Shown one piece after another: positions 7,714 to 58,655 of a stretch of DNA of 64,000 bases. Below the pieces are notes generated by a model. That model was given only the letters and a program-made list of their open reading frames with translations, did not search any database and was not told the DNA's origin. The position numbers were made by a program, and so were the translations under genes. Source of the DNA: Ilex aquifolium (Eukaryota > Streptophyta > Magnoliopsida > Aquifoliales > Aquifoliaceae); NCBI GenBank assembly GCA_951799425.1, contig OX637391.1, positions 18,462,551-18,526,550 on the forward strand. Reading direction: 5' to 3'. Every line of letters starts with the position of its first letter. The first letter of the stretch is position 1.

Positions 7714-7715
7714 TT

Positions 7716-16299: not shown

Positions 16300-16563
16300 T
16301 GAAGAAGACGAGTTGCAGAAAGAGGGGAAGAGGAATTGCAGAAACTGAACTTTGAAAGCAAGAATGCACAGAGGAGGATAAAGTGGAGAGAAGTCAAAAT
16401 AAAGGCAGTTTATATAGAGAGTGAATTTCAAAAGGCAAAATGCAGTGAATGAACCGCCAAAAATAGGGGGGGATTCACTTAGTACGAAGCAATGATGATG
16501 ATTAGAGGAGAAGGCGAGAAAACGGTTGACAGAGGCGTCTGTCAGACGTTTTCGGTGGGCAAA

Positions 16564-17306: not shown

Positions 17307-17311
17307 TTTAC

Positions 17312-33859: not shown

Positions 33860-34657
33860 TGATGGTGCTCGAAAATAGTGGCCCAAGTTCAGTTTCCCTA
33901 TCAGTTGTCCCAGAAAGGGCTCAGAGTAAATATGTAGAACAGTGGAATGAATGGAACAGTGAGGGAAGGATGAAAACACAGTGTAAGTGGTTCACCTTAG
34001 TCGAGAGACTTAGGCTACATCCACTGTAAGGGAGTCTCTTGCTCATTTGGGGTATATTGCTCAACTTGCGGGGGTTACAATGGTGTAGCTGGCTCAGAGC
34101 CTTTTACAATGTTTAAGTGTATTGAAGACTTGATAGAGCAAGGGAAGAAGATGATTTCCTACTATAGTAGAACAATATTCTATGTATACGAGTCACCTCT
34201 TCTAGGGTTTCCTGCAGCTCCCTTCTCATTTCTGTTGATTCTGTGGGCCCTCTTTTGTCCTGTAACAATCTTTGCCATGTGACGCCACTACGCCCGCAAC
34301 CTTTGAATGGTTATACGCACCAATACACTCAGTACCAGGGAGTGCATGTTTGTTATGAGTGTCAGAAATGGTCTCCTGGTCCTTAGGACACGTGGCGCGG
34401 TGATGGAGCTTTAAGACAAGCATTAGGCCGAGCTTCCTCGTCGGGCTGACATATGGCTGAGCTGGACCGGGGTTGGGCTGGGCTGGAACCCAGATCCATT
34501 AGTACCATTGGGCCTTTTTCTTTGGGCTCGGTCCATTCTGCTCTTGGTATGGACAGGCTGTGGGTGCTTCACTCTGGCCAATACGCGAGTTGTGATTTTT
34601 TGGGCTCGTTGTGCTCTTTGATTATGGCAACCCATGCCCTAAATCCCATCCTTATCA
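33860..34657 (-). repeat. 3' LTR of the minus-strand Tat element
   Basis: 798 bp, beginning TGATAAGGATGG and ending CACCATCA on the minus strand. A polypurine tract (minus strand GGGGTTGGGGGGCAAC) abuts it at 34658-34673. Confidence 0.92.
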
Positions 34658-34929
34658 GTTGCCCCCCAACCCCAGGTCACGAGGATGACGTCAGCTCAGA
34701 CCGAGGGTTAAAATCGTCTTTTTTGAATTTGACATGGTTTTCCTGAGCGGCGGTTGTGCTTGATTGTCGGTTTTGACCTGAGTTGTGCTGTGTCAACCTT
34801 TGCCGGCTGTGATGAGATGGTTATCGCCCACGTGTCACCCACAAGAACGCCTGTTGGTAAAGTTTTTTTTGCGTGTTTTGTTATATGTCTGTCACAAATT
34901 AAATGCTATGCACATAAAAGAGGGAAAAA

Positions 34930-36490
34930 CCCTTCGCCTTTCCCACCTTGTGGTTTTTGAATTCTCATCTATTCGTGCTCTCTTTTTCTTCCTTCGACTT
35001 CTGAGGCGTCTTGTTCAAAGCTCTTCGGCGATTTAGGGTTTTCGCGTTTTCAATCCCTTTCTGCTTCTAGCGTTTGACTAGGTACGTTTCTTTCCCTTCT
35101 TTCTTTTTGCGCAATCTGGATCCCTTCAACCTTACTTGGTGGGGCTTTGGGTTCCGTTTTCTGGTTTGGAGATTTAGCTACTTCAGGAATCGTTCCGATG
35201 ATTTTTCTTCCCTTTCGCAGTTTGTAGGTCACTCTATGTTGTTGAAGTTATCCTTCTTCAGGAACTGGTGTCTGAAACCCTTGTTCTTAACGGACTGTGT
35301 CTTGCATTTTCCCTCTCTTCATTCTGATTTGCGATCGGATCCATTGATGGGGAGGGTTGTAGTTTCTTCTTCTGAATTCGAGTTCGAGGACCAGGGAGAT
35401 GAGAATGTTTCTGCGGCCTCCACTAGTGGATGTTCTAAGGAGCTGGCGATGTAATAGTCGGTGGTGATAGGCTTTCTTTTTCCCCGTCAGAAAATTTAGA
35501 GTTCCTTCCTAGGGGATCTACCGAGGAGGCTTCCGGGTTGGTCCTTGAGGTTCCAGCTTCGGCCCCATTAGTAGAGGTCCAGGTTCCCTTGGCGTTACCC
35601 TCCTCTTCCTCTGGTTAATCTAAGAAGAGGAAGTCTACGGCGGCTCTGCCTTCTAAACTCAAGAAGAAGTCCCGTCGGGATCTGTTAGACCTAACTTGCT
35701 GTGCTGAGTCGACTCCTAGTCACCTTGATGACGAGGATCTAAAGGAGTTGAGGCAGGAATACCATTTTCCTGACTCTGTGGTATTACATTCTCCTGAGGA
35801 CCACGAGAGGTGTAACTCCTCCATCCCTGGGCTGACCTGTTTCTTTGAGTCTGCATTCTGAGTTGGCCTTCGATTCTCTGTTCATCCCTTCATTCGGGAT
35901 ATTCTTGCTTTTTACCAAATCTGCCCAACCTGATTTTCTCCAAATGGGTGGGGTCTTCTGATCGGTTTTCTTGTTCACTGGTTCGAGAGTGGGAATGACT
36001 CTCGTCCCACCATTCGAGAATTTGTCTCTCTTTTTCAACTCAAGTCTTCCCCTTCTATGGGCTTTTTGTACTTCGCCAAGAGGGTGAAAGCGAAGAACTT
36101 GATTTCTGGGCTTCCTTCTTCCAATAAAGGTGGAAACCGAGGTTTTTCTTCGTTAAAGGTGACTCCTAGGAGTTATCGGGGGAGCCTGGTGACGTTCCTC
36201 GTATTCCCAGGTTTTAGGGAATCCCTAGGAACATTAGTAAGCCTAGTCTTTAAACACTTTCTTTCCTTGTTCGTTTTCACCGTTATCTGCTAATTTCTGA
36301 CTCGTCTTGTAGGCTTTTGTCCCACACTTAACGCGGAGGAGGCCGCCAGAGTTGCTAGAACCAAGGCCTTGGGATTGCAATCTTTTTTCGAGCTTGTAAT
36401 TGACGAGAATCTTGCAAAGCACGAGCTCGGGACACCCGTCGATCCTGCTTTGGATACAACACTATCTCTTGCCCCCAGCCTGAATCCATG
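34930..36490 (+). pseudogene. Antisense ORF of the minus-strand Tat element
   Basis: On the strand opposite gag-pol, between integrase and the 3' LTR, plus-strand coding text is visible. An acidic/serine-rich N-terminal part (SSSEFEFEDQGDENVSAAST) is followed by a basic stretch (KKRKS) and a conserved-looking region near 35740-36110 (YHFPDSVVLHSPEDHE, HPFIRDILAFYQICP). It ends in a helical part near 36320-36490. Layout and the HPF...LAFYQI phrase resemble plant gypsy-type Transposase_28 antisense proteins, as in the 6971-17306 element. Broken several times. Confidence 0.6.
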
Positions 36491-36536
36491 AACCAAGATC
36501 TAATCATGGCTGTTTTTTTGGATACCGAGAAGACGA

Positions 36537-36680
36537 GCTGAAAAGCTCTTAGGCTGAAAAGCCTAGTAGTCTCAAGCTGAGAAGCTCGTAGGCTGAAAAG
36601 CCTAGTAGTCCTGAGCTGAAAAGCTCTTAAGCTGAAAAGCCTAGTCGTTCTGCGCAATTGAAGAGCTCGCGGTTTTTTCG
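36537..36680. repeat. Short tandem repeats in the Tat 3' region
   Basis: About three units of 45 bp, each made of two related halves built on gctgaaaagctctt and aggctgaaaagcctagtag. The position matches the tandem array of the 6971-17306 element although the sequence is different. Confidence 0.85.
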
Positions 36681-36846
36681 AGCAGAAATGCTTGTGGGCT
36701 GATTTAAGTGCAAAATTTCTATTTCACGAGAACCTCATAAATTTTATTGATCTAAAAAATGGGGTGTTACAATGGTCCTCTATTATAGTGGTTTTTAGAG
36801 GACTTTACTAGTAGTAACGCTTCAGGTGATCTGCATTCCAAGAATG

Positions 36847-39800
36847 TTATGAGTCCCTTCCTTCTTCTGTTTGTAACTCGTAATTTCCAGGTCGGATCAC
36901 CCTTTTCACGATGTAGGGCCCTTCCCTGTTTGGGCCAAGCTTTCCATGGGTTGGATCCTTCCTAGCTGGGAGCAGCTTTTTCAGCACCAAGTCGTCTGGC
37001 TTGAAACTCCTCCTCCTCACTCGCTTGTTATAGTATTTGGTTTTGTTCCTTTGGTACGAGAATATCCGTTGGAGTGCTTCTTCTCTCTTTTCATCTAGGA
37101 GGTCAAGATTGACCAATAGGGACCTCTCGTTCTGCTCGGGATCGAAGAGTTTGGCCCTTGCGGAAGGCAAGCTAACTTCAACTAGGGGCATCGCCTCTGT
37201 TCCTTACGCAAGGCTGAAAGGAGTCTCGCATGTCGTGGTCCGATATGCCCACAATACCGTCGAGAGATGGTCCACCCATTGGGACTTAGACGTTTTCAGT
37301 CTTGTCTTTAGAGCGAGCTTGATGGTTCTAATGGTGACCTCGGCTTGCCCATTGGATTACGGATGTGCGAGCGCCGAGAAGTAGTTCTTGATTCCCCGCT
37401 CGGCGCAGAAACCCGTGAATTTCGGATTATCGAACTGCTTCCCATTATCTGAAACCAACGCCCTAGGGACACCGAAAAGGCAGACCATTGATTTCCAAAC
37501 AAAGTTCTTAACCTTCTGCGCGGTGATTTTGGCCAATGGCTCAGCCTTTTGCCCACTTGGTGAAATAATCCACTGCGACTACAACAAATTTGCACTGTCC
37601 AACACCGATCGGCAGAGGCCCCAGGATGTCTAATCCCCATTGCTGGAAAGGCCATGGGCTGACGACGGGTGTGAGTTGTTCCTGCGGGCAGTGTGGCAGA
37701 TTGCCGTGAATCTGGCAGACCTGACATTTTTTCACCATCTCCTTCGCGTCTTTGGCCATGGTGAGCCAAAAGTATCCTTGTCGTAGTGTCTTGCTTGCCA
37801 AAGTTCTCGCACCGATGTGGTTTCCGCATATGCCTTCGTGAATTTTTCTCAGAATGTAATCTGCCTCCATTCTAGACACACATTTCATTAGAGGAAACGA
37901 AAAACCTTTTTTATATAGGTTACCTTAGACACACAAAGCTCTGGACCTTAGCTTTGACACTTCTTTCAGGTCATTAGGGAGTACCCCATCTTGTAGGAAA
38001 GATATGATGGGATCCATCCACGAAACGATTTCTTGGATTGGCATGACTTGGTTTTCCCTGGCCTAATCCTCATCGAGCTGGATACTGGGCTCGGCAAGGA
38101 TTTTAATGGAAACCTTCCCTGAAGAATCTTGTTGGGAGGTTGTGGCTAACTTGGCCAGTGCGTCGGCTCAGACATTGGCTTCTCGGGGTACTTGGACTAG
38201 CTCAGCCAAAACAAACTTAATCAGCAAGCTGCGCACTTTCATCACGTAAAGTGCCATCTTGTCATCCCTAGCGGCATACTCCTCTTCGACCTGCCTGACC
38301 ACCAACTGCGAGTCGCTGTGGATCACGATCTACTATGCATCCATTGACAAGGCCAGGTTGAGGCCGAAAATGAGGGCTTCATACTCTGTTTCGTTGTTGG
38401 ATGCTTGAAATTCGAATCTCAAAGCGTACTCCAAGTCGTACCCCTTGGGCTATGTTAGGATCAGGCCGACCCCACTTCCTTGGGCGTTTGATGCTCCATC
38501 TATGTACAAATTCCAGGTTGGGATATCAAGGACGCAGTCTTGGTTTTCTGTACTCTCTTCAGGTGGTGAGGTAAATTCGGCAAGGAAGTCTGCTAGGACT
38601 TGTCCCTTGATCGCAGTTCTAGGCTTGAAATTGATGTCGAATTCGCTAAGCTCCATTGCCCACTTTACCAATCTCCCTGAGGCTTTCGGCTTATGCAGGA
38701 CCTGTCTCATCGGCTGGTCCATTGGACTCTCGATGGTGTGTGCTTGGAAGTAAGGCCTCAGCATCTGAGCTGATACTAAGAGGGCTAGCACGAGTTTCTC
38801 CATCTTTGGGTACCTCTCTTTGGCCTTCGTAAGGGCTTTGCTGCAGAAGTAAACTGGTTGCTGGACTTTTTCCTTATCCTTTACCAAGGCGGCGCTGACT
38901 GAGAACTCAAACACAGCCAGGTAGAGGGTTAGAACCCCTCCTTCCCGAGGGCTCGCAAGTACTAGTGGTGAGGCCAAATATGCCTTGAGGGCTTGGAAAA
39001 CCTTCTCACATTTCTCGTCCCACCGAAAGGCTTCCTTCAAGACCTTGAAGAATGGTTGGCACTTGTCAATGGAGGGTGAAACAAACCGATTGAGAGCCGT
39101 TATTCTTTCGGTCAGGCGTTGTATTTCCGAGTGCTGGTGGGGGACTTCATTTCGAGGACGGCCTTCACTTTCTCGAGGTTGGCCTCAATGCCCTTGCTGT
39201 TGACTATGAATCTCAAGAATTTCCTTGTCGACACCCTAAAGGCACACTTTGCTGGGTTTAGCTTCATCCTATACTGCCGCATAATTTTGAACGCCTCCTC
39301 AAGGTGCTGAATATGGGATTCGGCTTTAAGGGACTTCACGAGCATGTCGTCTATATATACCTCCATAGTTGAGCTGAGCTTCTCGCAGAACATCCTATTA
39401 ACCAACCTCTGGTAGGTGGCCCTGGCGTAATTCAATCTGAAAGGCATGATCTGATAACAAAAGATCCCTTGCTCTGTAATGAACGAAGTTCTGGTCGTTC
39501 AGATCCTTTCTGATCTGGTTATACCCTGAGAAGGCATCCATGAAGCTGAGGAGCTCATGGCTAACTGTGGCATCGACTATTAGGTTGATCTGGGGTAGAG
39601 GAAAACTGTTTTTGGGGCATGCTCGGTTCAAATCAGTGAAGTCGATGCATAGCCGCCACTTGCCATTCACTTTCTTCACGAGCACGACATTAGCCAACCA
39701 GGTTTGATAATCTACCTCCCGGATGGCTTTTGCCCGTAGCAGCTTGGCCACCTCCTCATTAATAGCTCTCTGCCTTTCTGGTGAGAAGCTTCTCCTATTT

Positions 39801-40140
39801 TGTCTCACTGGTTGCAGTTCGGATCAACACTAAGCTGGTGTACAATCACTACGGGTTCTATTCCTTCCATATCTTCTTGTTTCCAGGCGAAGACATATGT
39901 GTTCTCCTTCAAGAACGAGATAAATTTTTCCTTGATGTCTGTGAGCAGCATAGTGCCTACGAAGACCACGTGCCCCCGGTCGTCGCCCATTTGCACAGGC
40001 TCCAGCTGCTCTGTGGGGGTGGGCCGCGTCTCCAACTCGTCCCTCATGTCCAAATCCTCTAGCTGGGCTGACTCTACCCCCTTCTGCCTCATTGATGCCA
40101 CATAGCATTCCCTGGCAAGGCGTTGATCCCCCCTGACCAT
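36847..40140 (-). pseudogene. pol region of the minus-strand Tat element
   Basis: Read leftwards: a leader into RT (about 39110-39810: VVLVKKVNGKWRLCIDFTDL, SFMDAFSGYNQI, YIDDMLVKS), RNase H (38640-39040: AFRWDEKCEKVFQALKAYL, DQPMRQVLHK), archaeal-type RNase H (about 38170-38510: WNLYIDGASNAQGSGVGLIL), integrase zinc finger and core (37300-37890: GNHIGARTLASKTLRQGYFW, CQVCQIHG, WGLDILGPLPIG), and a C-terminal part (36847-37190: KLGPNREGPYIVKRV). Two RNase H domains place it in Tat. Decayed. Confidence 0.9.
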
Positions 40141-40236
40141 GCCGACCCCATTCTCAGTGGGGAACTTTATTACTAAGTGGTATGCCGAAGGTATTGCTTT
40201 GATAGAATTGAGAGACGGTCTTCCGAGAAGGACGTT

Positions 40237-42291
40237 TTAGGCAGAGGGGGCGTCAACCACTATGAAACAGATAGTGGTTGTAACTTGACAGGGTTGGTCC
40301 CCCATAGTGAGGATGAGCTGGATAGGTCCGATCGGCAACACTCTCTCACCCGAGAAGCTTAGGAGATGCGTCTTTACGGGTTCAAGCCTTGATCTCTCTA
40401 TGTTGAGCTGATCAAAGGCCGACAGGAAGATGATATCTACCAAACTGCCATTGTCGATGAGCACTTGATGTATGGTCTTATTCGCGATGATTGCCTTTAT
40501 AACCAGGGGGTCGTCATGCGAGTGTTGGCATCTTGTAAGATCTGCGTTAGAAAAGGTAATCTCCACATCCCGACGAGGGGCTTTTCGAATTACCTGGACC
40601 TCAAGGAAATCTTTTGATCTTGCTCGTTTGGCGTACACCCTTCGTGTCGAGCTGGACTCACCTCCTCCTGCAAAACCCCCCAAGATGACCTGAATCTCTC
40701 CAAGGGCCTGCTGGTGTTGTTGTGGGGGTTGAGGGGCACCTCGGGAGTGTCGCCTCTGGTTGTTATGCTCTCTTCCTTCTCTTGCCACATAGTGGCGTAG
40801 GTGACCCTTTTGGATAAGGTATTCTATTTCCTTCTTGAGTTGGATGCAGTCGTTCGTCTCGTGGCCGGTGTCCTTGTGGAATTCACAGTACTTTGCGGGG
40901 TCCCTCCTCCTAGGATCAGATTTCATCCGAGGTGGCCATCGGATGAACCTTTCATTCTGGACCTGATGGAGGACCTATGCAATAGAGGTGACCAAGGGCG
41001 AAAGTCGCACTGGGGCGTATCGGGGCTGTAATTCTTGTGGCGGGGGCCCTAGGCGGTCTCTGACGTTGCCTCTTCTCTTAGGAGATGACTCTCTTCCCAT
41101 TCTCAAAGAGCAACCCCTCCTCGGTGACCGATCATGTTTTCTCTCCTTTCTGGGACTACGATCCCTCTTCTTTTTTCCTTTTTCTGTCGATGTCGAACCC
41201 CCTTTAAGGTGAAGGGCCTCCTCGTCGTTGATGCATTTTTTGGCTTTCGTCAGTACCTCGGCCATAGTGGCTTGAGGATTTTTTGCGATTGAGAACAGGA
41301 GATCCTTGGATTGAACTCCGAGCCCAGACATGAAAGTGGTCAGCTTGAACTTGTCATCCACACTTTCCACCTTCAGGCATTCTTGGTTGAAACGTTGTAC
41401 ATAGCTCCGGAGGGACTCGTTGGGCCCCTGTTTGACGGTTAAAAGGTGGTAGGACGGCTTCCTGTACGTCCTTGCTCCGATGAAGTGCGATACGAATTGT
41501 ATGGATAGCTCCCTGAAGGAGGAGATTGATGCTGGCTGTAGTCTATTGAACCAAGCAATTGCCGACCCTTTGAGGGTGATGGCAAAAGCTCGGCATTGTA
41601 TGGGGTCTGGGTACCCCTGGAGTTCTATCTAATTTTTGTAAGAGTTCAAGTAGTCAACCGGATCTTTGGTCCCGTCGAATGCCTCTATCGATGGCATCCG
41701 AAATTTCTGAGGGAGGGGGAAATCAAGGATCTCTGGGGCTAATGGTGACTCAGTTTGCTGGACCAGAGCGTCCATGGTGTTGGGAGTCTTCCCTTTAACC
41801 ATTTATTTCATATTAGCCAGCTCTCGTTGGAGCTCGCGAAGTTTCTGCTCCAAAAGGTGATCCATGACATCTGGCGGGGGAAGGGGTTTGTCTTCTCGAT
41901 AGGCGGCTCGGGCCCGATTGTGGGCTTCATCCTCAATGTGTTCCTCCCAATGTCTCCTCTAGTTATTTTCCCTAGAGTGGTTGTGCTCATGAAGCTCCGT
42001 GACCCCATTAGGCAGAGCTTGGCGTTCTTGAGGAGAAGCGTTGTGTTGTGCCGGAGGTGGAGGAGGTTCCTGATGGGCTGGTGGGAAGTATAGAAGCTGG
42101 TGTGTCTGTATCCACATCATCAACTCTTGGTTCTACTTTATCAATTGCATCGTGGTTCGAAGATAGGCTTCCAATTCGTTGAGCGGAGGGAGGTTTGCCG
42201 CTGGAGGGTGGTTCCTGACGTCCTCTTCGGGGGCCGGGAGATTCTCAGGTAAGTTCTGGAGAACTTGGGGATTGGTATGAGATTTACTCAT
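40237..42291 (-). pseudogene. gag-protease region of the minus-strand Tat element
   Basis: Starts at a Met at 42291 shortly after the primer-binding site. The gag capsid lies at about 41380-41700 (AITLKGSAIAWFNRLQPASI, LRSYVQRFNQECLKV), then a basic Arg/Ser-rich stretch (KKRDRSPRKERKHDRSPRRG). A CCHC knuckle lies near 40860-40890 (CEFHKDTGHETNDC), and the aspartic protease at about 40240-40540 has LIDNGSLVDIIF and LLSFSGERVLPIGP. The same knuckle form occurs in the 6971-17306 element. Broken. Confidence 0.85.
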
Positions 42292-42360
42292 ATTCCGAGT
42301 CGAAACCATCAAACTAACAAGGATGTAACAGATTCGAAGGAAAACGATGAAAATCGTTTC

Positions 42361-42376
42361 CCACAGACGGCGCCAA
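42361..42376 (-). other. Primer-binding site of the minus-strand Tat element
   Basis: The minus strand reads TTGGCGCCGTCTGTGG one base inside the 5' LTR, identical to the primer site of the young Tat element. Confidence 0.85.
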
Positions 42377-42377
42377 C

Positions 42378-43167
42378 TGATAGTACCTGAAAATAGTGGC
42401 CCAAGTTCAGTTTCCCTATCAATTGTCCCAGAAAGGGCTCAGAGTAAATATGTAGAACAGTGGAATGAATGGAACAGTGAGGGGAGGAAGAAAACACAGT
42501 GTAAGTGGTTCACCTTAGTCGAGAGACTTAGGCTACGTCCACTGTAAGGGAGTCTCTTGCTCCTTGAGGGTATATTGCTCAACTTGCGGGGGTTATAATG
42601 GTGTAGCTGGCTCAGAGCCTTTTACAATGTTTAAGGGTATTGAAGACTTGATAAAGCAAGGGAAGAAGATGATTTCCTACTGTAGTAGAACAGTATTCTA
42701 TTTATACGAGTCACCTCTTCTAGGGTTTCCGGCGGCTCCCTTCTCCTTTCTGTTGATTCTGTGGGCCCTTTTTTGTCCTGCAACAATCCCTGCCACGCGA
42801 CGCCACTACGCCCGCAGCCTTTGAATGGTTATATGCACCAATACACTCAGTACCAGGGAGTGCGTGTTTGTTATGAGTGTCAACAATGGTCTCCTTGTCC
42901 TTAGGACAGGTGGCGGGGTGATGGAGCTTTAAGACAGGCATTGGGCCGAGCTTCCTCCTCGGGCTGATATATGGTTGTAGACTGGGGCTGGGCTGGAACC
43001 CAGATCCACTGGTACCGTTGGACCTTTCCCTTTGGGCTCGATCCATTCTGCTCTTGGTATGGACAGACTGTGGGTGCTTCACTCGGGCCAATACGCGAGT
43101 TGTGGTTTCCTGGGCTCATTGGGCTCTTTGATTATGGCGGCCCATGCTTGAAGTCCCATCCTTATCA
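42378..43167 (-). repeat. 5' LTR of the minus-strand Tat element
   Basis: 790 bp, same ends as the 3' LTR. Differences are mostly transitions plus a few short indels. Confidence 0.92.
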
Positions 43168-43526
43168 GTGTCACATCACTTAGGATGAAAAAATTTATAA
43201 AAAACTTGGTAAACATAACATTACTATAATTGAAAGGTACATAAGTTGGCTCCTTTTGGCATTTTCGTCTTACCAGTGTCTGAAAACTTGGGTAAGCGTA
43301 TACAAAACTCCTCGGATGCAGCTATCATTTTCAGAGGTCTACTCTCTACATGGTTTACGAGTTTCAACCCTTCATATCACTAGATTTTCAACTCTTTTTT
43401 TTATATATTGATGAGAAGCTTCGGTTAGACACAAATTCAATAGATTGTGTCTTCAAGTATTGGTTCCCTTGACCATATGAGCAGAGACTAAACCAGAATA
43501 TCTATATCTGTATTTATATCTATATT
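43168..43526. other. Right half of interrupted MITE X, then spacer
   Basis: 43168-43220 completes the MITE split by the Tat element (gtgtcacatcacttagg). The rest is AT-rich without a gene. Confidence 0.6.
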
Positions 43527-48920: not shown

Positions 48921-49036
48921 GTGTTTGTTATAAATTTGAAATTCTAATGCTTATGCAATTGAACTGTTACAAAATATATATATATATATATAATCAGATA
49001 AACCTGATTTCTCGGATAAATCCGGCCCGGAAGAAG

Positions 49037-49221
49037 TGACGCACGCCATGACGTCACTTCAAGATATTTTGAAGATGTAAATAATGAGCACAGTGCTTGT
49101 ACAGTTTTGCTGACGTATGGTATGACGTCATTGTTTTTTATTAAAGTTTGGTACAGTATAAAGTTGTGAATAGTATAGGTTTGTTTTGAAATCCGGATTT
49201 CATGTCCGGCTCTATTTAAGG
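49037..49221 (+). promoter_or_regulatory. 35S-like promoter: two as-1-like elements and TATA
   Basis: TGACG pairs separated by exactly 7 bases occur at 49037-49053 (TGACGcacgccaTGACG) and 49111-49127 (TGACGtatggtaTGACG). This is the arrangement of the as-1 element of the cauliflower mosaic virus 35S promoter, bound by TGA-type bZIP factors. A TATA-like ctatttaagg follows at 49212-49221. Function is inferred from layout. Confidence 0.8.
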
Positions 49222-49452
49222 ATGCAGCCTCAGCCTGTTGGGGACATCCTTCGCTTTGCAATCCTTCGTTTTGGAATCCTTCTTTCAACCCACTTACCTA
49301 CTCCCTTCTTTGTCTTTCTTACATCCTCTCTGAACCCTTCCCTTGTATATTACCTTCCATCTTCTACCTTCCACACTAGTACTGTAAGTAGACTCTTGTA
49401 CATAAGCTTTTAAGCTTTCAGCACTTTGTATATATACAAGCTTTCAGCATTA

Positions 49453-49458
49453 AATAAA
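49453..49458 (+). terminator. Viral poly(A) signal
   Basis: AATAAA about 235 bases after the TATA box. In caulimovirids a signal placed this way lies in the part of the RNA present at both ends. Confidence 0.65.
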
Positions 49459-49508
49459 AGCTTTGTTTGTACATATTCCTTGTACATACACCGATCCTTC
49501 CCCCTTGT

Positions 49509-49520
49509 TGGTATCAGAGC
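49509..49520 (+). other. Viral primer-binding site (tRNA-iMet)
   Basis: TGGTATCAGAGC, complementary to initiator tRNA-Met, used by caulimovirids to prime reverse transcription. It lies 50 bases after the poly(A) signal and 507 bases before the movement-protein start. Confidence 0.9.
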
Positions 49521-49881
49521 CAAGTAATGGTAGCTTAAGTATATTCTGTTGATTTATATGCGGATCTATTACTAATTCTGGTTGCTTTTGTAATGGTGAT
49601 TTAATTCTGTTAGACTACTGTTATTATGAAATTGTTACTTTAATTCTGTTATAATGATGTTCCTCGTTTGCTTCTATGCTTGGTGTAATTTTGTTTGTGA
49701 TGATTTTTCTCTGTATGCTTTCTATGGTGCTGTGGGGCGTAAGGGATGTTGTTGGCCGCTTTTCCGCTGTTAGGAGTTTAGGCCGTTTTGGGTAGATTCC
49801 CATTTCTGTCCCGCCAGAAACGTTGACAGTTTGTAGGAGGTGGGAAAATCATTGTAGCAAGATGAAACTAATTATAGTTAG

Positions 49882-51607
49882 TTGGGAGGTCATTATACTA
49901 GAATTATGGTAATAATATTCCTGATAATGGTACTGTAGTAGAATTAAAAGACATATTACACTTGCAACTAGATGATGGTAATAGTAAAGCATATGAGTCA
50001 ACAGAAACACTTTCGAGTCTACCTCTATGGCACTAAGTCTTTTTAAATTTAAAAATAATCATAAAGAAGATTATGTTAAAAATATGGAAGAAATAGAATT
50101 CTCTGATATTGAAAATAAATTGCAGAACTGGGATATACCCCAGTACCCCACTAAGAAAATCTATAATATTGGTACTTTTGATTTTAAATCGAGTTTGACA
50201 ATTAAAACGATTGAAAGGACTGTTCCTTTTGATCAAAATGGAGATATTCTTCAACTATTAACTGAACGAGAAGTCTTAAAGACTCAAGAAAATTATAAAT
50301 TTTTACATATCGGTTTGGTCCAAGTTGCTTTAAAACCTTTGACCCTTAAAGGGTGTAATTCCTCTTTTTTGTTAACTTTAAGAGACGCTAGGTGTCTTGC
50401 TTTTGATCAATCCTTAATGGGAGTTATGCAGTCTAGTTTAAGTACTGGCCCTGTTTATTTTAACTGTTTTCCAGATCTATCTGTTTCTTTAACTGATAAA
50501 AATATTTTGGATGTTTTAACATGCAATATTAAAACCTTTGGTTATAATTTCAAAGAAGGAACTGATATAATGACTTTTATATATAGAGTCTATTATAAAG
50601 TTATGAACACTTTAAGTCCCGAAGCTAAGCTTCATAATCATAAAGGTAAAACAACTTTAATTGAAACTAATGCAATTAAGAATAAAATTGAAATTCCTAA
50701 AACCATTAAATGGTCAGAAATTCAGTTTCCAGAAACCTGGAAATTGGAATCAGTGGTTCATAAAAAACCAGAGATAAATGAAGAAATAACTCAAATTACC
50801 CAGTCAACCCAGGGTGATGTTTTGATATCTTTTGCTAGAAATAATTTCTCTAGTTTAAAAATCTTTGATAAATCAGAAACTTCTTCAGATTATTCTACTC
50901 CTATAAGAAGATCTACTTCTTCGGTCTTAAATCGAAGAAAAGGTAAAGAACCCATAATTGAAGGTATAAAAACTTCTCATAATCAAATTCCCCATGGAAT
51001 TTACAGACAAGATAAAGAAATTTTTAATGATGAGGATTTTATTGATCCTACTCCATCCGAGATCGGATTTCAAATATAGTTTTTATGGATATACACCAAA
51101 AAGAATTTGTTGTTAATCGACAAGAAATTAATGATGAGTTTTATCTCCCTAAATATAAAGAATTTAGAGATTGGTATTTTGGGACTATGAGTCCGGATGA
51201 CCTCAAAAATTATAAAGAAATGTTTTATCTTTATATAGAAAGAGAAAAAAGAATAATTCCTTTTGTTAGTTGGTTTTTAACCTATCATGCTCCATCAAAT
51301 CTAAATCAGCTCAAGGAACTTAAAAATTTCCTTCCAGATATTGAGGATAAAGAGTTCATAAATGAACTCAAAAATAAGTTACCACCAATAATTGTTGAAT
51401 CCTCTAAGCTTGAAATCAACACCTTAAGTAATAGTCCACAAGATAAAGATTCAACATCTTTAAAAGATTTACCGGACAATTCTTGCTATAACAAGAATCT
51501 TGAAAAGGACATAGACTATAAAGGCTATAAAGACAGGTCTAAAACTTTTCAAGAACAAGACAAAAGATTTATTAAATGTTTTAAATGTAGCAAAAAGGGA
51601 CATGTTG
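49882..51607 (+). repeat. Viral inverted arm, left
   Basis: 1726 bp, the reverse complement of 55031-56756 with only two or three visible differences and no length difference. The spacer between the arms is about 3.4 kb. Confidence 0.92.
50027..51079 (+). CDS. Caulimovirid movement protein, left copy (fossil)
   Basis: A 350-residue frame that looks whole. It matches the 30K-superfamily movement proteins of Caulimoviridae, which line plasmodesmata and let virus pass between cells. Typical text includes the stretch around residues 114-150 (LTLRDARCLAFDQSLMGVMQ) and NIKTFGYNFKEGTDIMTFIY. The C-terminal third is Ser/Lys-rich and probably flexible. It is translated identically in the minus-strand copy at 55559-56611. 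A stop and a gap of five bases separate it from the next frame. It is part of a broken array. Confidence 0.87.
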   Translation: MALSLFKFKNNHKEDYVKNMEEIEFSDIENKLQNWDIPQYPTKKIYNIGTFDFKSSLTIKTIERTVPFDQNGDILQLLTEREVLKTQENYKFLHIGLVQVALKPLTLKGCNSSFLLTLRDARCLAFDQSLMGVMQSSLSTGPVYFNCFPDLSVSLTDKNILDVLTCNIKTFGYNFKEGTDIMTFIYRVYYKVMNTLSPEAKLHNHKGKTTLIETNAIKNKIEIPKTIKWSEIQFPETWKLESVVHKKPEINEEITQITQSTQGDVLISFARNNFSSLKIFDKSETSSDYSTPIRRSTSSVLNRRKGKEPIIEGIKTSHNQIPHGIYRQDKEIFNDEDFIDPTPSEIGFQI

Positions 51608-51723
51608 GAATAATTATAACACTGATGATAAGTGTCAAATTATTGAAGAATGTCTTAAAGACATGGGAAAAGAGGGCGAGGAACCTACCACCTCAAACTC
51701 TATTATTCCCACTTCCAGTATAA
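51085..51723 (+). pseudogene. Caulimovirid coat-region frame, left copy (partial fossil)
   Basis: Begins MDIHQKEFVVNRQEINDEFY like the long frame of the minus-strand unit and agrees with it as far as the CCHC finger (KCFKCSKKGHV, near 51575-51606), after which the text differs. This N-terminal part should correspond to the capsid region, which in this family ends in a CCHC finger. Broken copy. Confidence 0.8.
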
Positions 51724-52067
51724 ACACTGGCCCTAATTTCAATCTTATTGAAGTTCTTAAAGAACAAATTAACAAAGAAAAACCCCATTTAAATACTGAG
51801 CAGCTTAAAGCTGCAGTTATGGAGGAAATGCGTCTTCAGGTGATGTCTACCTTTGGAATGGGCAAAACCGAGAAGATGGATCTCGCTAATACTCCAACAG
51901 TTGCCATAAAAGGCAAAGAGAAAGATAAAGTCGAGGAAGACGATGGGAAAATTCCAACTCCTATTGACTCTGATGAAGACTTTATGGATTCTCAGGGATA
52001 TACCCCTCTTAAAGGAAATAATCAGATAAACCTGATTTCTCGGATAAATCCGGCCCGGAAGAAGTGA
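51663..52067 (+). pseudogene. Acidic/lysine-rich viral frame of unknown role
   Basis: A charged frame (KGKEKDKVEEDDGKIPTPID) that runs into the 475-bp repeat. It is not recognisable as capsid, protease or RT, and by position it would be the 3'-most viral gene. I cannot assign a function. Confidence 0.45.
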
Positions 52068-52492
52068 CGCACGCCATGATGTCACTTCAAGATATTTTGA
52101 AGATGTAAATAATGAGCACAGTGCTTGTACAGTTTTGCTGACGTATGGTATGACGTCATTGTTTTTTATTAAAGTTTGGTACAGTATAAAGTTGTGAATA
52201 GTATAGGTTTGTTTTGAAATCCGGATTTCATGTCCGGCTCTATTTAAGGATGCAGCCTCAGCCTGTTGGGGACATCCTTCGCTTTGCAATCCTTCGTTTT
52301 GGAATCCTTCTTTCAACCCACTTACCTACTCCCTTCTTTGTCTTTCTTACATCCTCTCTGAACCCTTCCCTTGTATATTACCTTCCATCTTCTACCTTCC
52401 ACACTAGTACTGTAAGTAGACTCTTGTACATAAGCTTTTAAGCTTTCAGCACTTTGTATATATACAAGCTTTCAGCATTAAATAAAAGCTTT
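52018..52492 (+). repeat. 475-bp viral promoter/terminal repeat, copy 2
   Basis: Same extent as copy 1, with the TATA text at 52239-52248 and AATAAA at 52481-52486. It ends at the junction with the minus-oriented unit. Confidence 0.85.
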
Positions 52493-52583
52493 AAGCTTCA
52501 AAGATTCAGTTAAAGGAGGATAATATGCATTGACCTGGGCTCTACCACCGGGTCTTATTCTACCGCGGCCACGGCCACGATAA

Positions 52584-55553
52584 CTACTCTGGCCTCGATT
52601 CATGAGAACCCTGCAAAAATTCCCTAGTTAGAAAGTCGGGAAGAGAATTTAATTCTTCTTTAACATAATCAATTTTAAAATCAAAGACTGATAAAATAGC
52701 CTGCCATCTTGCAAAAATTTGTTTAGATGCAATATTTTTTACATCTTGTTCAAGAACATTTTTGGCAGAACTACAATCAATTCTTAATAAAAATTCTTGA
52801 TTTAACAAGTCATCTTGAAATTTACTGATACACTTAACAATAGATAAAATCTCCTTTTTAATAGTGGAATAATTGAATTGAGTAGATCCCCATTTACCAG
52901 AGGTAAATCTGACAAGTAATTCTTTTTTAGTATTGGGATCTTGCTGTTTTAAAATACCTCCATAGCCTATATCTGAGGCATCAGTTTCAACAATTTTATA
53001 CCAGTCAGGTTTTACCAAAGAAAGACATGGTAAAAGCTTAGCTTTAAGTTTAATTTTTCTTACGGCTTCAGTATGAAGATCTGTCCAAGGAGATGGATTC
53101 TTTTTAAGTCTAGAGTGTAAAATAACAGTATCTTTAGCGAGATTTTGATAAAAATCTGTCAAATAATTTAAACTGCCCAAAAATCTTTGCAATTGCCTTT
53201 TATCTTTAATTTCATCCGGAAATTTGGATGCAAATTCAATACTTCTTTCGATTGGGACTATATTTCCATGTTCAATATAATGTCCTAAAAACCTGACTTT
53301 TAATTGAAATAATTTCATTTTTATTGCTGATAGGACTAATCCATTTTGTTTAACAATATGAATGAATTTATTCAGATGTTTAAAATGCTGATCAATAGAT
53401 TCAGAAAAGATGAGTATATCATCAATATATACAATACAAAATGCATAGAAAGCATAGAATATATCATTCATAATATTCTGAAATTCTGATGGAGCATTTT
53501 TAAGTCCAAAAGGCATAACATTCCATTCATAATGTCCGAAAGGTACTGTGAAAGCAGTCTTATACCTGTCTTCCTCAGCAATTTGGATCTGCCAATAACC
53601 TGACTTTAAGTCAAACTTAGAAAAGATTTTAGCGTTATATAATCGAGATAATAAATCTTTTTTATTGGGGATGGGATATCGAATCCATTGCAATACCTTA
53701 TTTAAAGGTTTATAATTTATAACCAATCTAGGAACTCCACGTTCCTTTTCGGCAGCGTTATTAACATAAAAGGCTGCACAACTCCATGGGGAATAACTTT
53801 TTCGAATTAAAGATTTATCAAGTAAGGAATCAATTTCCTTTTTACAAAGTTCCAAATATTCTTTATTCATTTGGGTAGGTCTGGCCTTAGTAGGAATATC
53901 CTTTTCATTAAACTTTTTAACATAGGGAAGAGTTACGATATGTTTTTTCCTATTCCAAAAAGCAGTAGGAATAGTGTTACATATTTCTTTAGTTATTTTT
54001 TCTTCAATTTCTTTTATCCTATGTTTATATTCAGGGGAGTTAAGTTTATTAGATAAACTTAAGATTTTTATATCTTCTTTAAGAAAATTTAATTGATTTT
54101 CTTTATAAAACAAATTTTCTTTTATTTGATTTATCATTTTGATTTGAGGTGGAGTTATAAACTCAAATAATATATGTTGACCATTTATGGTAGTCAAAAT
54201 TCCTTTAGAATCAATTTTTTCTATAGGTTGAATCATAGATAAAAATGGTGTTCCCAAAATCACCAATTGATTCAAATTATCGATAAGCATAAAAGTAGTA
54301 GGAATACAAATTCCTTGGTTACAAACATAAACTTTGGAAAGTTTAAAGTTTATATTTAATTTCGAACCATCAGCAGTACTTATCGACTGAGTAATTTTTT
54401 CAAAATATTTGGTAGGAATTAATCCTGCTTTGATGCAGTTCATATCTGCTCCGCTATCAATTAAAGCAGTTGTTTCAACCACAAAATCTTGATTTATTAC
54501 CAGAGTAAGTTTAACATACCATTTCTGATAAGTGATTTTGTCTAAAACATTTAAGTTTTTAATATCAGAATTGTTAGTTTCTGTAATGTCAGAATTGTTA
54601 GTTTCTGTAATGTCAGAAGAGTTATCAACTTTTATGTCTGCATCCTTTATGTCACTATTCTTAACAAGACTTGAAAGTTTTTGCTTTATGATTTTTATAT
54701 CATTTTTGATGTAATTAATCTCCTTTTGAAGATCTGACTTTGTGGTAGGTGATACGTCTTTAAGGTGAGAATCTTCAAATGACATATTTTTTGTCCTATT
54801 AAGGACTTCATTAAATAACTCTGATTGAGACATTGTGGATTTATTTTCTTCTAGATTTGTCTTTAGATATTGTTCAATGGCTTTTCGTTTAGAAGAAGGA
54901 TCTTGAATTTTATCAATAAGATCAAGAATTAAAGTTTGAGACTTAGTCAAAGTATTTATACTTAATTCGTTCATATTTATACTGAACTTAGTCATGGCCT
55001 TCTTAGCATGATAATAATAGCATGTGGAAGCAACATGTCCCTTTTTGCTACATTTAAAACATTTAATAAATCTTTTGTCTTGTTCTTGAAAAGTTTTAGA
55101 CATGTCTTTATAGCCTTTATAGTCTATGTCCTTTTCAAGATTCTTGTTATAGCAAGAATTGTCCGGTAAATCTTTTAAAGATGTTGAATCTTTATCTTGT
55201 GGACTATTACTTAAGGTGTTGATTTCAAGCTTAGAGGATTCAACAATTATTGGTGGTAACTTATTTTTGAGTTCATTTATGAACTCTTTATCCTCAATAT
55301 CTGGAAGGAAATTTTTAAGTTCCTTGAGCTGATTTAGATTTGATGGAGCATGATAGGTTAAAAACCAACTAACAAAAGGAATTATTCTTTTTTCTCTTTC
55401 TATATAAAGATAAAACATTTCTTTATAATTTTTGAGGTCATCCGGACTCATAGTCCCAAAATACCAATCTCTAAATTCTTTATATTTAGGGAGATAAAAC
55501 TCATCATTAATTTCTTGTCGATTAACAACAAATTCTTTTTGGTGTATATCCAT
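52584..55553 (-). CDS. Caulimovirid polyprotein: coat/zinc finger, protease, RT, RNase H (fossil)
   Basis: A 989-residue frame that looks whole. The N-terminal coat-like region ends in a CCHC finger (KCFKCSKKGHVASTC, about residues 170-185). A long linker carries a small repeat (SDITETNN twice). The aspartic protease has DSG at 54450-54458. RT follows with FDLKSGYWQI, VMPFGLKNAPSEFQ and the catalytic YIDD at 53418-53429. RNase H has VETDASDIGYGGIL, KKEIL, RIDCSS and LPDFL. No integrase follows, which separates it from gypsy elements. Having coat region and polymerase in one frame while the movement protein is separate is a useful character for placing the genus. A short Arg/Gly-rich frame overlaps its end. 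Confidence 0.88.
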   Translation of the reverse strand: MDIHQKEFVVNRQEINDEFYLPKYKEFRDWYFGTMSPDDLKNYKEMFYLYIEREKRIIPFVSWFLTYHAPSNLNQLKELKNFLPDIEDKEFINELKNKLPPIIVESSKLEINTLSNSPQDKDSTSLKDLPDNSCYNKNLEKDIDYKGYKDMSKTFQEQDKRFIKCFKCSKKGHVASTCYYYHAKKAMTKFSINMNELSINTLTKSQTLILDLIDKIQDPSSKRKAIEQYLKTNLEENKSTMSQSELFNEVLNRTKNMSFEDSHLKDVSPTTKSDLQKEINYIKNDIKIIKQKLSSLVKNSDIKDADIKVDNSSDITETNNSDITETNNSDIKNLNVLDKITYQKWYVKLTLVINQDFVVETTALIDSGADMNCIKAGLIPTKYFEKITQSISTADGSKLNINFKLSKVYVCNQGICIPTTFMLIDNLNQLVILGTPFLSMIQPIEKIDSKGILTTINGQHILFEFITPPQIKMINQIKENLFYKENQLNFLKEDIKILSLSNKLNSPEYKHRIKEIEEKITKEICNTIPTAFWNRKKHIVTLPYVKKFNEKDIPTKARPTQMNKEYLELCKKEIDSLLDKSLIRKSYSPWSCAAFYVNNAAEKERGVPRLVINYKPLNKVLQWIRYPIPNKKDLLSRLYNAKIFSKFDLKSGYWQIQIAEEDRYKTAFTVPFGHYEWNVMPFGLKNAPSEFQNIMNDIFYAFYAFCIVYIDDILIFSESIDQHFKHLNKFIHIVKQNGLVLSAIKMKLFQLKVRFLGHYIEHGNIVPIERSIEFASKFPDEIKDKRQLQRFLGSLNYLTDFYQNLAKDTVILHSRLKKNPSPWTDLHTEAVRKIKLKAKLLPCLSLVKPDWYKIVETDASDIGYGGILKQQDPNTKKELLVRFTSGKWGSTQFNYSTIKKEILSIVKCISKFQDDLLNQEFLLRIDCSSAKNVLEQDVKNIASKQIFARWQAILSVFDFKIDYVKEELNSLPDFLTREFLQGSHESRPE

Positions 55554-56756
55554 AAAAACTATATTTGAAATCCGATCTCGGATGGAGTAGGATCAATAAA
55601 ATCCTCATCATTAAAAATTTCTTTATCTTGTCTGTAAATTCCATGGGGAATTTGATTATGAGAAGTTTTTATACCTTCAATTATGGGTTCTTTACCTTTT
55701 CTTCGATTTAAGACCGAAGAAGTAGATCTTCTTATAGGAGTAGAATAATCTGAAGAAGTTTCTGATTTATCAAAGATTTTTAAACTAGAGAAATTATTTC
55801 TAGCAAAAGATATCAAAACATCACCCTGGGTTGACTGGGTAATTTGAGTTATTTCTTCATTTATCTCTGGTTTTTTATGAACCACTGATTCCAATTTCCA
55901 GGTTTCTGGAAACTGAATTTCTGACCATTTAATGGTTTTAGGAATTTCAATTTTATTCTTAATTGCATTAGTTTCAATTAAAGTTGTTTTACCTTTATGA
56001 TTATGAAGCTTAGCTTCGGGACTTAAAGTGTTCATAACTTTATAATAGACTCTATATATAAAAGTCATTATATCAGTTCCTTCTTTGAAATTATAACCAA
56101 AGGTTTTAATATTGCATGTTAAAACATCCAAAATATTTTTATCAGTTAAAGAAACAGATAGATCTGGAAAACAGTTAAAATAAACAGGGCCAGTACTTAA
56201 ACTAGACTGCATAACTCCCATTAAGGATTGATCAAAAGCAAGACACCTAGCGTCTCTTAAAGTTAACAAAAAAGAGGAATTACACCCTTTAAGGGTCAAA
56301 GGTTTTAAAGCAACTTGGACCAAACCGATATGTAAAAATTTATAATTTTCTTGAGTCTTTAAGACTTCTCGTTCAGTTAATAGTTGAAGAATATCTCCAT
56401 TTTGATCAAAAGGAACAGTCCTTTCAATCGTTTTAATTGTCAAACTCGATTTAAAATCAAAAGTACCAATATTATAGATTTTCTTAGTGGGGTACTGGGG
56501 TATATCCCAGTTCTGCAATTTATTTTCAATATCAGAGAATTCTATTTCTTCCATATTTTTAACATAATCTTCTTTATGATTATTTTTAAATTTAAAAAGA
56601 CTTAGTGCCATAGAGGTAGACTCGAAAGTGTTTCTGTTGACTCATATGCTTTACTATTACCATCATCTAGTTGCAAGTGTAATATGTCTTTTAATTCTAC
56701 TACAGTACCATTATCAGGAATATTATTACCATAATTCTAGCATAATGACCTCCCAA
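55031..56756 (-). repeat. Viral inverted arm, right
   Basis: Partner of 49882-51607. It ends at the right TA repeat. Confidence 0.92.
55559..56611 (-). CDS. Caulimovirid movement protein, right copy (fossil)
   Basis: 350 residues, identical in translation to the copy at 50027-51079. It starts 145 bases from the right edge of the array, so this copy has lost its own leader, primer site and promoter context. It is followed by the polyprotein after five bases, the same spacing as in the left copy. Confidence 0.87.
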   Translation of the reverse strand: MALSLFKFKNNHKEDYVKNMEEIEFSDIENKLQNWDIPQYPTKKIYNIGTFDFKSSLTIKTIERTVPFDQNGDILQLLTEREVLKTQENYKFLHIGLVQVALKPLTLKGCNSSFLLTLRDARCLAFDQSLMGVMQSSLSTGPVYFNCFPDLSVSLTDKNILDVLTCNIKTFGYNFKEGTDIMTFIYRVYYKVMNTLSPEAKLHNHKGKTTLIETNAIKNKIEIPKTIKWSEIQFPETWKLESVVHKKPEINEEITQITQSTQGDVLISFARNNFSSLKIFDKSETSSDYSTPIRRSTSSVLNRRKGKEPIIEGIKTSHNQIPHGIYRQDKEIFNDEDFIDPTPSEIGFQI

Positions 56757-56836
56757 TTATATATATATATATGTATATGTATGTATATATTAAGTACATA
56801 ATTTTTAACTTAGTCATTTGAATTTGATCTATGTAG

Positions 56837-58655
56837 TGCTTATGAATTAGAAGAAAGTTCATTTACGAGTTTTGGAGTTGCTTCTCAAACATGTGTATCG
56901 GAAGTTCGACATTCACTCGGGAGTATGACGACAAAATGTTCTCATTGTTCAGCCTTACACTGGAAGGATGAAAAATTAGCCATTTCAACTTCATCACGTG
57001 TTTTGTTTGGAACATGTTGTTTGCAAGGAAAGATTAGGTTACCTTCACTTTTTACACCCCCTTCAGCACTTAAAGAATTGTATGATGACAATGATGATAA
57101 ATCAAAGTCGTTTCGGCAACATGTATGAGAATATAATGTAACTAATGCTTTTACGAATCTTGGTGCTACATTGGATCCAAGATTACTAAGTAGAAGGGGT
57201 CCTACATCATTCACTATCCATGGAGAATTACGTCATCGAACAGGATCGCTCATATCACAAGGAGGTCATGAACCAATGTATAGTCAATTGTACATTTATG
57301 ATCCTAATTCAGCTTTAGATTTTCTCAGTAGCAGAAGTCCCCAGTTGCAAAGGGATGTTTTGAAAATTATTCGAGACTGTTTGTCTCATGTAAATCCATT
57401 CCCAGATAAATTTCATCAAGCTTATGAGATTTTAAGTTAATCAGAATTGGCAGGTCAAAGTTTACCTGCTTATCTTCGTTATAATCCAACACTAGATAGA
57501 CGGCGATATAATCTCCCTACGACAAATGAGCTTGCAGTAATATTACCCGGAGATAGAAGTGAGTCAAGTGGTATGAGAGATATTGTTTTACATCTGAGAG
57601 GAAATAATGAATTGTTGTAGATCAATGAATGCCACCCAGCATATTTACCATTGCATTATGTATTATGTTCCCTTACGGCGAGCTTGGATGGGAACCTGAG
57701 TTGAGGCAGTGGGACCCTTCTGTTATTTACTGTTATCGTTTGTTTGAACATCTAACTGAATATTCAACAATTTTTTTTGGGAGGGGGGGGGGGGGAATTA
57801 TTCCAAAAGTGTTTAGTAGATGATTGGGCCTCAACGGAACAAAATTGGTTGACATACTATAAGCTTAATCAAGCAAAACTCCATGCAGAACTTTACAAAG
57901 GCCTTACAGATGTTTGTGCAGATGAGCTGGGTCCTGAACAAATTGGTCAACGGATGATTTTGTCATCTTCCTTCACTGGGAGCGCAAGACATATGTTTGA
58001 AATCTTTCAAGATTCAATGGCTATTACACAATACAATCAACACCCATATATATTTCTCACCATGACCGTAAATCCCAATTGGCCTGAAATTTCTTCAGCT
58101 ATATTATCGCATCAAACAGTTTATGACCATTTTGATTTAGTTGCCCGAGTTTTTGAGTTAAAGAGAAAATTTTTGATGAAGGAGATAGAAACGAAACAAC
58201 TATTTGGAAAAAAAGTAGCACATGTTTTTACAATCGAATTCCAAAAACGGGGTTTGCCACATATGCATGCACTTTTGTTCCTTCATGGGCCGGACAAAGC
58301 ACGAACATGTGCCCAGGTAGACAATCTGGAATGCGCTGAATTTCCAGATTCTTACGATAATCCTATTTTTTTTTATACAATCAAGAGTTGCATGATATAT
58401 GGATCATGTGGTACCCGAAATCCGAATGCATCATGTATGAAAAATGGACATTTTAATTATTCTATTCTTTTTGATACAATCAAGAGTTGCATGTTTAAGA
58501 TTATCAAGAATAATATTGCAGCAACGAATAATAACATGAACATTTTAATTATTCTATTTCTCTTATTGTTGTTGGTGTGTTGTTGTTATTATTCTTACAC
58601 TATTAGATCACACGTGTTAGTAAAAAAAATATTTTATTCTTGTAATATTGGTTAA
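56837..58655 (+). pseudogene. Helitron Rep (HUH) region, 3' exon
   Basis: Helitron Rep nicks and joins single-stranded DNA during rolling-circle transposition. After an AG at 56835-56836 the frame reads AYELEESSFTSFGVASQTCV and a Cys pair (CSHCSALHW...CCLQGKIRLP). Helitron N-terminal domain text follows (PTSFTIHGELRHR, PYGELGWEPELR, EQNWLTYYKLNQAKLHAEL, QRMILSSSFTGSARHMFEIF) and then the HUH core EFQKRGLPHMHALLFLHG, with HMH at 58260-58268. The start phase (2) fits the exon ending at 48920. In-frame stops at 57126, 57438 and near 57618 and frame changes near 57665 and at a 13-G run (57783-57795) make it a pseudogene. The catalytic tyrosines and the helicase domain were not found. Confidence 0.85.

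What the first reader, a model, noticed from the sequence alone, without database searches (positions are those of the whole stretch)
48990..56756. Inverted endogenous caulimovirid array with near-identical arms
Two partial pararetroviral units lie tail to tail, with 1726-bp inverted arms (49882-51607 and 55031-56756) that differ at only two or three visible sites and have equal length, plus a 475-bp direct repeat with about one difference. That implies very recent duplication, integration or conversion. Movement protein is in its own frame, while coat region, protease, RT and RNase H share one 989-residue frame. I cannot match this layout to a named genus with confidence, so it may be an undescribed lineage.
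Basis: partly seen in the sequence, partly recalled or inferred. Interest (0 to 1): 0.9.

Follow-up and report, generated by a model that had tools for sequence, protein, structure and literature searches.

The report
Inverted plant-virus fossil lacking coat core
A stretch of what is likely a plant chromosome carries two broken, mirror-image copies of a plant DNA virus between two TA repeats; where they overlap the copies are almost identical, so the capture was likely recent, neither shows a recognisable coat-protein core, and the mirrored arms are predicted to make double-stranded RNA.

Summary
Arms 49882-51607(+) and 55031-56756(-) are 1726 bp with 2 mismatches; direct repeats 48990-49464 and 52018-52492 are 475 bp with 1 mismatch. 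It is an endogenous caulimovirid: RT-RNase H scores 316 bits against cauliflower mosaic virus, 208 against Ty3. Both outer ends lie in (TA)n, 2 of only 4 such runs in the window, so one insertion of rearranged viral DNA is likely. The direct repeats look like the viral promoter/poly(A) region; a Met-tRNA primer site and a 493-nt leader stem-loop follow the first. Unit 1 lacks protease-RT-RNase H; unit 2 lacks promoter and primer site. The 'unmatched' layout is in print: Glycine max virus, a florendovirus, has ORF1 split after the movement protein. Unusual: no coat-core Pfam model hits and ORF1+ORF2 weigh 156 kDa against 205-216 kDa for florendovirus ORF1, as in component A of bipartite florendoviruses. 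The movement protein is a deep branch, at most 46% identical to 53 relatives in a tree. RT placement among endogenous genera, copy number, host and expression could not be tested.

The parts
48974..48992 (.). (TA)n at the left end of the insertion (taken as host)
   Evidence: one of only 4 (TA)>=6 runs in 64 kb
48990..49464 (+). Direct repeat copy 1: probable viral promoter / poly(A) region (TATTTAAG 49213, TGACGTCA 49049 and 49123, AATAAA 49453)
   Evidence: promoter role inferred from motifs and position
49509..49521 (+). Met-tRNA primer-binding site TGGTATCAGAGCC
   Evidence: consensus as quoted in PMC13308828
49530..50022 (+). Predicted leader stem-loop of 493 nt, 186 pairs; 17 upstream ATGs in the leader (49245-50026, start site assumed), first short uORF 49527-49538 at its foot
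   Evidence: (z -9.6; 0 of 20 shuffles as stable)
49882..51607 (+). Inverted arm, unit 1
50027..51079 (+). ORF1, movement protein, unit 1 (350 aa, open)
   Evidence: PF01107, 2.2e-20
51085..51607 (+). ORF2 5' part, unit 1: DUF7588, broken inside the zinc knuckle by the deletion junction 51607/51608
51609..52067 (+). Probable C-terminal end of ORF3 (152 codons to stop), no confident Pfam family
52018..52492 (+). Direct repeat copy 2: probable promoter / poly(A) region (TATTTAAG 52241, AATAAA 52481)
52493..52603 (-). Probable start of ORF3 (ATG 52603), overlapping the end of ORF2 in another frame, cut at the junction with repeat copy 2
52584..55553 (-). ORF2, unit 2 (989 aa, open): DUF7588, CCHC, aspartic protease, RT, RNase H; no coat-core model hit
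55031..56756 (-). Inverted arm, unit 2
55559..56611 (-). ORF1, movement protein, unit 2 (350 aa, open, same protein as unit 1)
56612..56756 (-). 3' part of the leader, unit 2; no promoter, no primer site
56758..56772 (.). (TA)n at the right end of the insertion (taken as host)

Best explanation
The locus holds two partial, oppositely oriented copies of one caulimovirid (plant pararetrovirus) genome, nearly identical where they overlap, between two TA runs, likely captured together as filler DNA when a chromosome break inside a single TA repeat was repaired. Shown: family, gene order, arms, repeats, TA flanks, the deletion in unit 1 and the missing coat-core match. Inferred: viral DNA of more than unit length, one piece with an internal deletion and one reversed, was joined by end joining; the virus was florendovirus-like, with ORF1 split after the movement protein; its genome already lacked the coat core, since the stretch from DUF7588 into the zinc knuckle is the same in both units. 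Predicted activity: repeat copy 1 would drive a sense RNA of unit 1 ending at the poly(A) signal in copy 2; copy 2, same orientation, would drive RNA antisense to unit 2. Over the 1.7-kb arm these would pair, or a read-through RNA would fold back, and feed Dicer-like enzymes, so the locus would more likely be a source of silencing RNA than of virus.
For: Arms and repeats. (TA)n at both ends, 2 of 4 runs in the window; 0.19% of the window lies within 5 bp of a run; TA flanks and capture during break repair are the published pattern (PMC10377300 section 3.1; PMC4241990 passages). RT-RNase H: CaMV 316 bits vs Ty3 208, 42% vs 33% identity on fold alignment. MP PF01107. Split-ORF layout known in one florendovirus. 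Coat core: PF24925 is found in relatives P0078 and P0080, and PF22909 in P0078, but neither in window pieces at E up to 10. dsRNA from reverse-oriented copies is a published model (PMC8256270, figure legend), and inverted tomato copies are reported to make 22-nt siRNA (PMC10377300, passage).
Against: No RNA or small-RNA data. Whether promoter and poly(A) work was not tested. A single capture event is not proven: the second unit could have been added later, or conversion could have evened out the arms. Florendovirus membership rests on layout, not on an RT tree; the primer site just before the leader stem is the arrangement reported for badnaviruses and sweet potato vein clearing virus, while florendovirus PpersV-sc1 has it on the ascending arm. 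The coat core could be too diverged for Pfam rather than absent; the relatives used as a yardstick are fragments, and PF22909 in P0078 is itself below its curated cut-off.
Confidence: 0.7

Rival explanations
1. Two steps: an older insertion, then a second viral molecule or segmental inversion-duplication at the same place, with gene conversion keeping the arms alike.
For: Long near-identical inverted arms can convert (general knowledge). Arm edges are sharp.
Against: Arms (0.12%) and direct repeats (0.21%) show similar, low divergence; TA runs stand only at the outer ends and no evident host DNA lies between the units.
Confidence: 0.2
2. Assembly artefact: one unit wrongly duplicated in reverse.
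For: Near-identical inverted copies are a known assembly risk; no reads were available.
Against: The two arms differ at two sites and run into different, non-mirrored sequence (one ends at a deletion junction, the other continues through protease and RT; one has promoter and primer site upstream, the other a TA run).
Confidence: 0.06
3. An LTR retrotransposon (Ty3 type): unit 1 with its 475-bp direct repeats is an LTR element.
For: Direct repeats around unit 1 and a Met-tRNA site downstream of the first.
Against: The primer site lies 44 nt past the repeat, not adjacent; a movement protein is present; no integrase in the array pieces scanned while the same library finds one in the neighbouring Ty3-type element; RT closer to CaMV than to Ty3.
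Confidence: 0.03
4. The coat core is present but too diverged for Pfam; the genome is an ordinary full one.
For: A zinc knuckle and DUF7588 remain; Pfam sensitivity is finite.
Against: Only 91 residues lie between DUF7588 and the knuckle; of 8 relatives with DUF7588, none has a knuckle in the 2-200 residues that follow it; ORF1+ORF2 is 49-60 kDa short of florendovirus ORF1.
Confidence: 0.2

Closest known systems
Glycine max virus (Florendovirus, endogenous; Geering et al. 2014, PMC4241990)
   Same: Three ORFs, ORF1 split after the MP domain; MP-CP-AP-RT-RH1 order; downstream ORF of unknown function; TA-repeat flanks are frequent in florendoviruses.
   Different: No coat core detected here; RT relatedness could not be tested.
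Bipartite florendovirus component A (Vitis vinifera, Oryza; PMC4241990)
   Same: Florendovirus layout with partial or complete loss of the coat domain; components measure 5.5-6.9 kb.
   Different: MP is a separate ORF here; no coat-bearing partner could be sought; unit 1 is not a component B, because its join to ORF3 is out of frame and the protease is gone.
Endogenous banana streak virus and tomato inverted ECV loci (reviewed in PMC10377300, passages)
   Same: Viral pieces repeated in opposite directions; inverted copies reported as siRNA sources.
   Different: Expression not tested here; RT 34% identical to a banana streak virus.
Cauliflower mosaic virus RT (PDB 8r0s)
   Same: Best solved relative of the RT-RNase H, 42% identity over 395 columns.
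   Different: Caulimoviruses have seven ORFs, with the coat in an ORF of its own (recalled).

Membership tests
Caulimoviridae | Caulimovirid-type RT-RNase H rather than Ty3 | tested here: met
   CaMV 316 bits / 42%; Ty3 208 bits / 33%
Caulimoviridae | 30K-type movement protein | tested here: met
   PF01107 2.2e-20; 107 proteins, the organism names shown are all of plants
Caulimoviridae | Met-tRNA primer site and structured leader with uORFs | tested here: met
Caulimoviridae | Coat protein with conserved domain and zinc knuckle | tested here: inconclusive
   knuckle present; no coat-core model at E up to 10 though the models work on relatives. The copies are partial; read as loss in this element
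Florendovirus (tentative genus) | MP-CP-AP-RT-RH1 order plus a downstream ORF in another frame with no known domain | tested here: inconclusive
   order met except the coat core; ORF3 only as two probable ends
Florendovirus (tentative genus) | Primer site on the ascending arm of the leader stem (PpersV-sc1), not downstream of the stem | tested here: inconclusive
   site 49509-49521, stem from about 49530: not downstream, but just before the stem rather than on its arm; literature
Florendovirus (tentative genus) | RT-RH1 in the florendovirus clade | not testable with these tools
   no florendovirus or petuvirus RT appeared in the matches shown
Petuvirus | One polyprotein ORF; primer site downstream of the stem | tested here: not met
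   separate MP ORF; site before the stem; criteria
Wendovirus (proposed) | Zinc-finger ORF before MP; two aspartic proteases, one after MP in the same ORF | tested here: not met
   one protease found, in ORF2; zinc knuckle after MP; criteria
Metaviridae (Ty3) | Integrase | tested here: not met
   no rve in the array pieces scanned; rve found in neighbouring element by the same library
Bipartite florendovirus component | Partner component with matching intergenic region in the same genome | not testable with these tools
   own-genome search did not complete (16 tries)

The most novel reading that the evidence does not exclude
The captured molecule is the coat-less segment of a divided or helper-dependent pararetrovirus of an undescribed, genus-level lineage that split its movement protein off on its own. 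It entered this chromosome within roughly the last 0.1-0.3 million years, so a coat-bearing partner may still exist, and the mirror-image array now works as a natural silencing locus against that virus.
Probability: 0.15. Interest if true: 0.7.

Novelty: new member of a known kind. Interest (0 to 1): 0.36.

Why it matters
Divided genomes in reverse-transcribing viruses are reported by the papers seen here only from endogenous florendoviruses (PMC4241990, PMC10377300). A young, open-frame, coat-less copy with a stand-alone movement protein would be a clean test of whether such components are real. A near-perfect inverted array with two same-direction probable viral promoters is also a clear case for asking whether captured viruses become silencing loci.

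Tried and rejected
LTR retrotransposon, Wendovirus and Petuvirus were rejected by layout and domain tests (see membership test). Unit 1 as a 'component B' was rejected: the join to ORF3 is out of frame and the protease is missing. The single-sequence AlphaFold model of RT-RNase H was useless (pLDDT 38). A second with 18 retroelement rows gave 83.6; one of the 19 fetched loci (L019, 11 stops) was left out. IMG/VR scans found no relative; I did not check whether that collection holds caulimovirids, so this says little. The one genome-contig scan gave 19 RT loci, 18 of them titled as metagenome-assembled genomes; I take them as Ty3-type without a test.

Limits of counts. The MP search lists only proteins of 0.55-1.75 times the query length, so full polyproteins are missed. 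The first tree used 62 rows: the window MP and 61 of 107 hits; the other 46 are under 300 aa (recounted). The second used 54 rows: 8 more dropped, as long-branched (P0022, P0039, P0043, P0080, P0081, P0097, P0106) or on a long branch within its group (P0078). In both, the window MP falls in one supported set (23 rows at SH-aLRT 98; 19 rows at 100/98) where it is the only row classed as split; its own branch is long in both, so its exact place is unsure. The classes are mine: split = 320-380 aa with a C-terminal S-x-x-x-F-like motif (17 of 107 hits); fused = Pfam-fused or over 400 aa; many rows in the class 'other' may be cut fragments. The 10 relatives scanned were chosen from the 11 of 107 whose listing shows DUF7588 or DUF7746 (P0028 not scanned), so they are no random sample.

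Full report
Observation. A self-comparison confirms every repeat claim: inverted arms 49882-51607(+) and 55031-56756(-), 1726 bp, 2 mismatches; direct repeats 48990-49464 and 52018-52492, 475 bp, 1 mismatch. The frames are as described, and a 989-codon open frame at 28.9% GC has a chance of about 3e-37. Domains: MP (PF01107) in ORF1; DUF7588, zinc knuckle, retropepsin, RT and RNase H in ORF2.

Family. The RT-RNase H piece scores 316 bits against PDB 8r0s, the CaMV RT, and 208 against Ty3. A model with mean pLDDT 83.6 gives 42% identity to CaMV and 33% to Ty3. In BFVD it gives 40% to a vaccinivirus, 37% to Rose yellow vein virus, 35% to Agapanthus tungrovirus, 34% to a banana streak virus, 32% to soybean chlorotic mottle virus and 30-33% to three other badnavirus-type entries (the 50 best of 1471 matches were shown; two unnamed entries also at 40%; short fragments run higher, up to 50% over 138 columns). 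No integrase was found in the array pieces scanned, although the same library finds one in the neighbouring Ty3-type element. It is a caulimovirid. That the host is a plant follows from the family, not from a test of the host.

Anatomy. On the + strand: (TA)n; repeat copy 1 with TATA-like, TGACGTCA and AATAAA motifs; Met-tRNA primer site 49509-49521, 44 nt past the repeat; a predicted 493-nt leader stem-loop, the leader more stable than 20 of 20 shuffles, z -9.6, with 17 upstream ATGs; ORF1; ORF2 as far as the zinc knuckle; a deletion junction at 51607/51608; 152 codons that end at 52067, read here as the end of ORF3; repeat copy 2. There the - strand unit abuts: leader remnant, ORF1, whole ORF2, and the first codons of an ORF that starts at 52603 in another frame and is cut at 52493. 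Then (TA)n again. Unit 1 thus lacks protease, RT and RNase H; unit 2 lacks promoter and primer site; the middle of ORF3 is in neither. That the two ORF3 ends belong to one gene is inferred from position.

Integration. Only four (TA)>=6 runs occur in the window, and two are the two outer ends of the array. TA flanks, multicopy rearrangement and capture during double-strand-break repair are the published picture (PMC10377300, first parts of its sections 2 and 3, and passages; PMC4241990, section on bipartite genomes, and passages). No evident host DNA lies between the units, so one event is the simplest reading. Three differences in 2201 bp give about 97,000 years (20,000-285,000) at 7e-9 per site per year, or 52,000 at 1.3e-8; both rates are recalled, not from a call. 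Conversion would make this too young; variation already present among the viral molecules would make it too old. For scale, LTR pairs of the two neighbouring elements differ at 6 of 746 positions and by 8.2%.

Layout and placement. Geering et al. describe Glycine max virus, a florendovirus with three ORFs through division of ORF1 after MP. [quoted passage not shown] section 7). Here it lies about 8 nt before the predicted stem: this speaks against Petuvirus and is close to, but not the same as, PpersV-sc1. ICTV gives one ORF for petuviruses (PMC7660458, whole text). So florendovirus-like is the best fit, on layout only.

MP relatives. One answered search gave 107 proteins, among them proteins named as from Trifolium, Rhododendron, Lonicera, Helianthus and Solanum. 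Hits covering at least 89% of the query are 35-45% identical; shorter matches reach 62% over 26% of the query. In a careful tree of 54 rows the window MP has a long branch (0.70), highest identity 46%, and sits in a 100/98-supported set of 19 rows, 8 of them classed as fused, in which it is the only one classed as split; the other 17 rows classed as split lie elsewhere. The division after MP therefore may have arisen more than once, and this virus looks like a separate lineage. Polyproteins above the search's length limit were not seen, so closer kin may exist.

Coat core. Relatives P0078 and P0080 show DUF7746 (PF24925), and P0078 also the caulimovirid coat domain (PF22909, 7.3e-5, 23.5 bits, below its curated cut-off of 27), after MP. 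In 8 of 10 scanned relatives, chosen for their listed domains, DUF7588 follows MP. The window has DUF7588 at ORF2 13-73 and the knuckle at 165-178, 91 residues apart, with no coat model between them at E up to 10. None of the 107 hits contains a knuckle, and P0099 runs 200 residues past DUF7588 without one. ORF1+ORF2 weigh 156.0 kDa against 205-216 kDa for florendovirus ORF1. Both units share the stretch from DUF7588 into the knuckle, so the loss likely predates capture. This resembles component A of bipartite florendoviruses. Whether a partner exists could not be tested: the own-genome search did not complete in 16 tries.

Likely activity. The two probable promoter regions point the same way. 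The first would read unit 1 sense and stop at the poly(A) signal in the second; the second would read unit 2 antisense. The products share the 1.7-kb arm. A review models dsRNA from transcripts of reverse-oriented endogenous copies (PMC8256270, figure legend), and another reports inverted endogenous caulimovirids in tomato as sources of 22-nt siRNA (the primary paper is not held). For this locus the step is prediction.

Verdict. A well-made observation of an ordinary kind of thing, an endogenous caulimovirid array, with two worthwhile twists: a genome without a detectable coat core, with a split-ORF florendovirus-like layout and a deep MP branch; and a young inverted array built as a potential silencing locus.

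Noticed in passing
window 6971-17309: Ty3-type LTR element with gag, RNase H and integrase domains; the 746-bp terminal repeats differ at 6 positions.
   Followed up: partly
window 33871-43169: Older LTR-type element with an RNase H frame on the minus strand, repeats 91.8% identical over 789 columns.
   Followed up: partly
window 57777-58655: ORF with Helitron_like_N domain (2e-44) about 1 kb right of the array.
   Followed up: no
window 26246-26710: Dense minisatellite with copy spacings of 9-15 bp, largely inside an open frame.
   Followed up: no
L003-L005, L007-L011, L016: Open RT(-RNase H) frames in contigs binned as methanogen, Bacillota, Bacilli or Erysipelotrichaceae genomes; possibly eukaryotic retroelements in metagenome bins.
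   Followed up: no
L001: Protease, RT and RNase H-like genes on a record listed as a 5.3-kb circular Wolbachia plasmid from Corcyra cephalonica; may be a host retroelement.
   Followed up: no
L020 1501-2628: Open RT frame in a contig titled Streptomyces clavifer.
   Followed up: no
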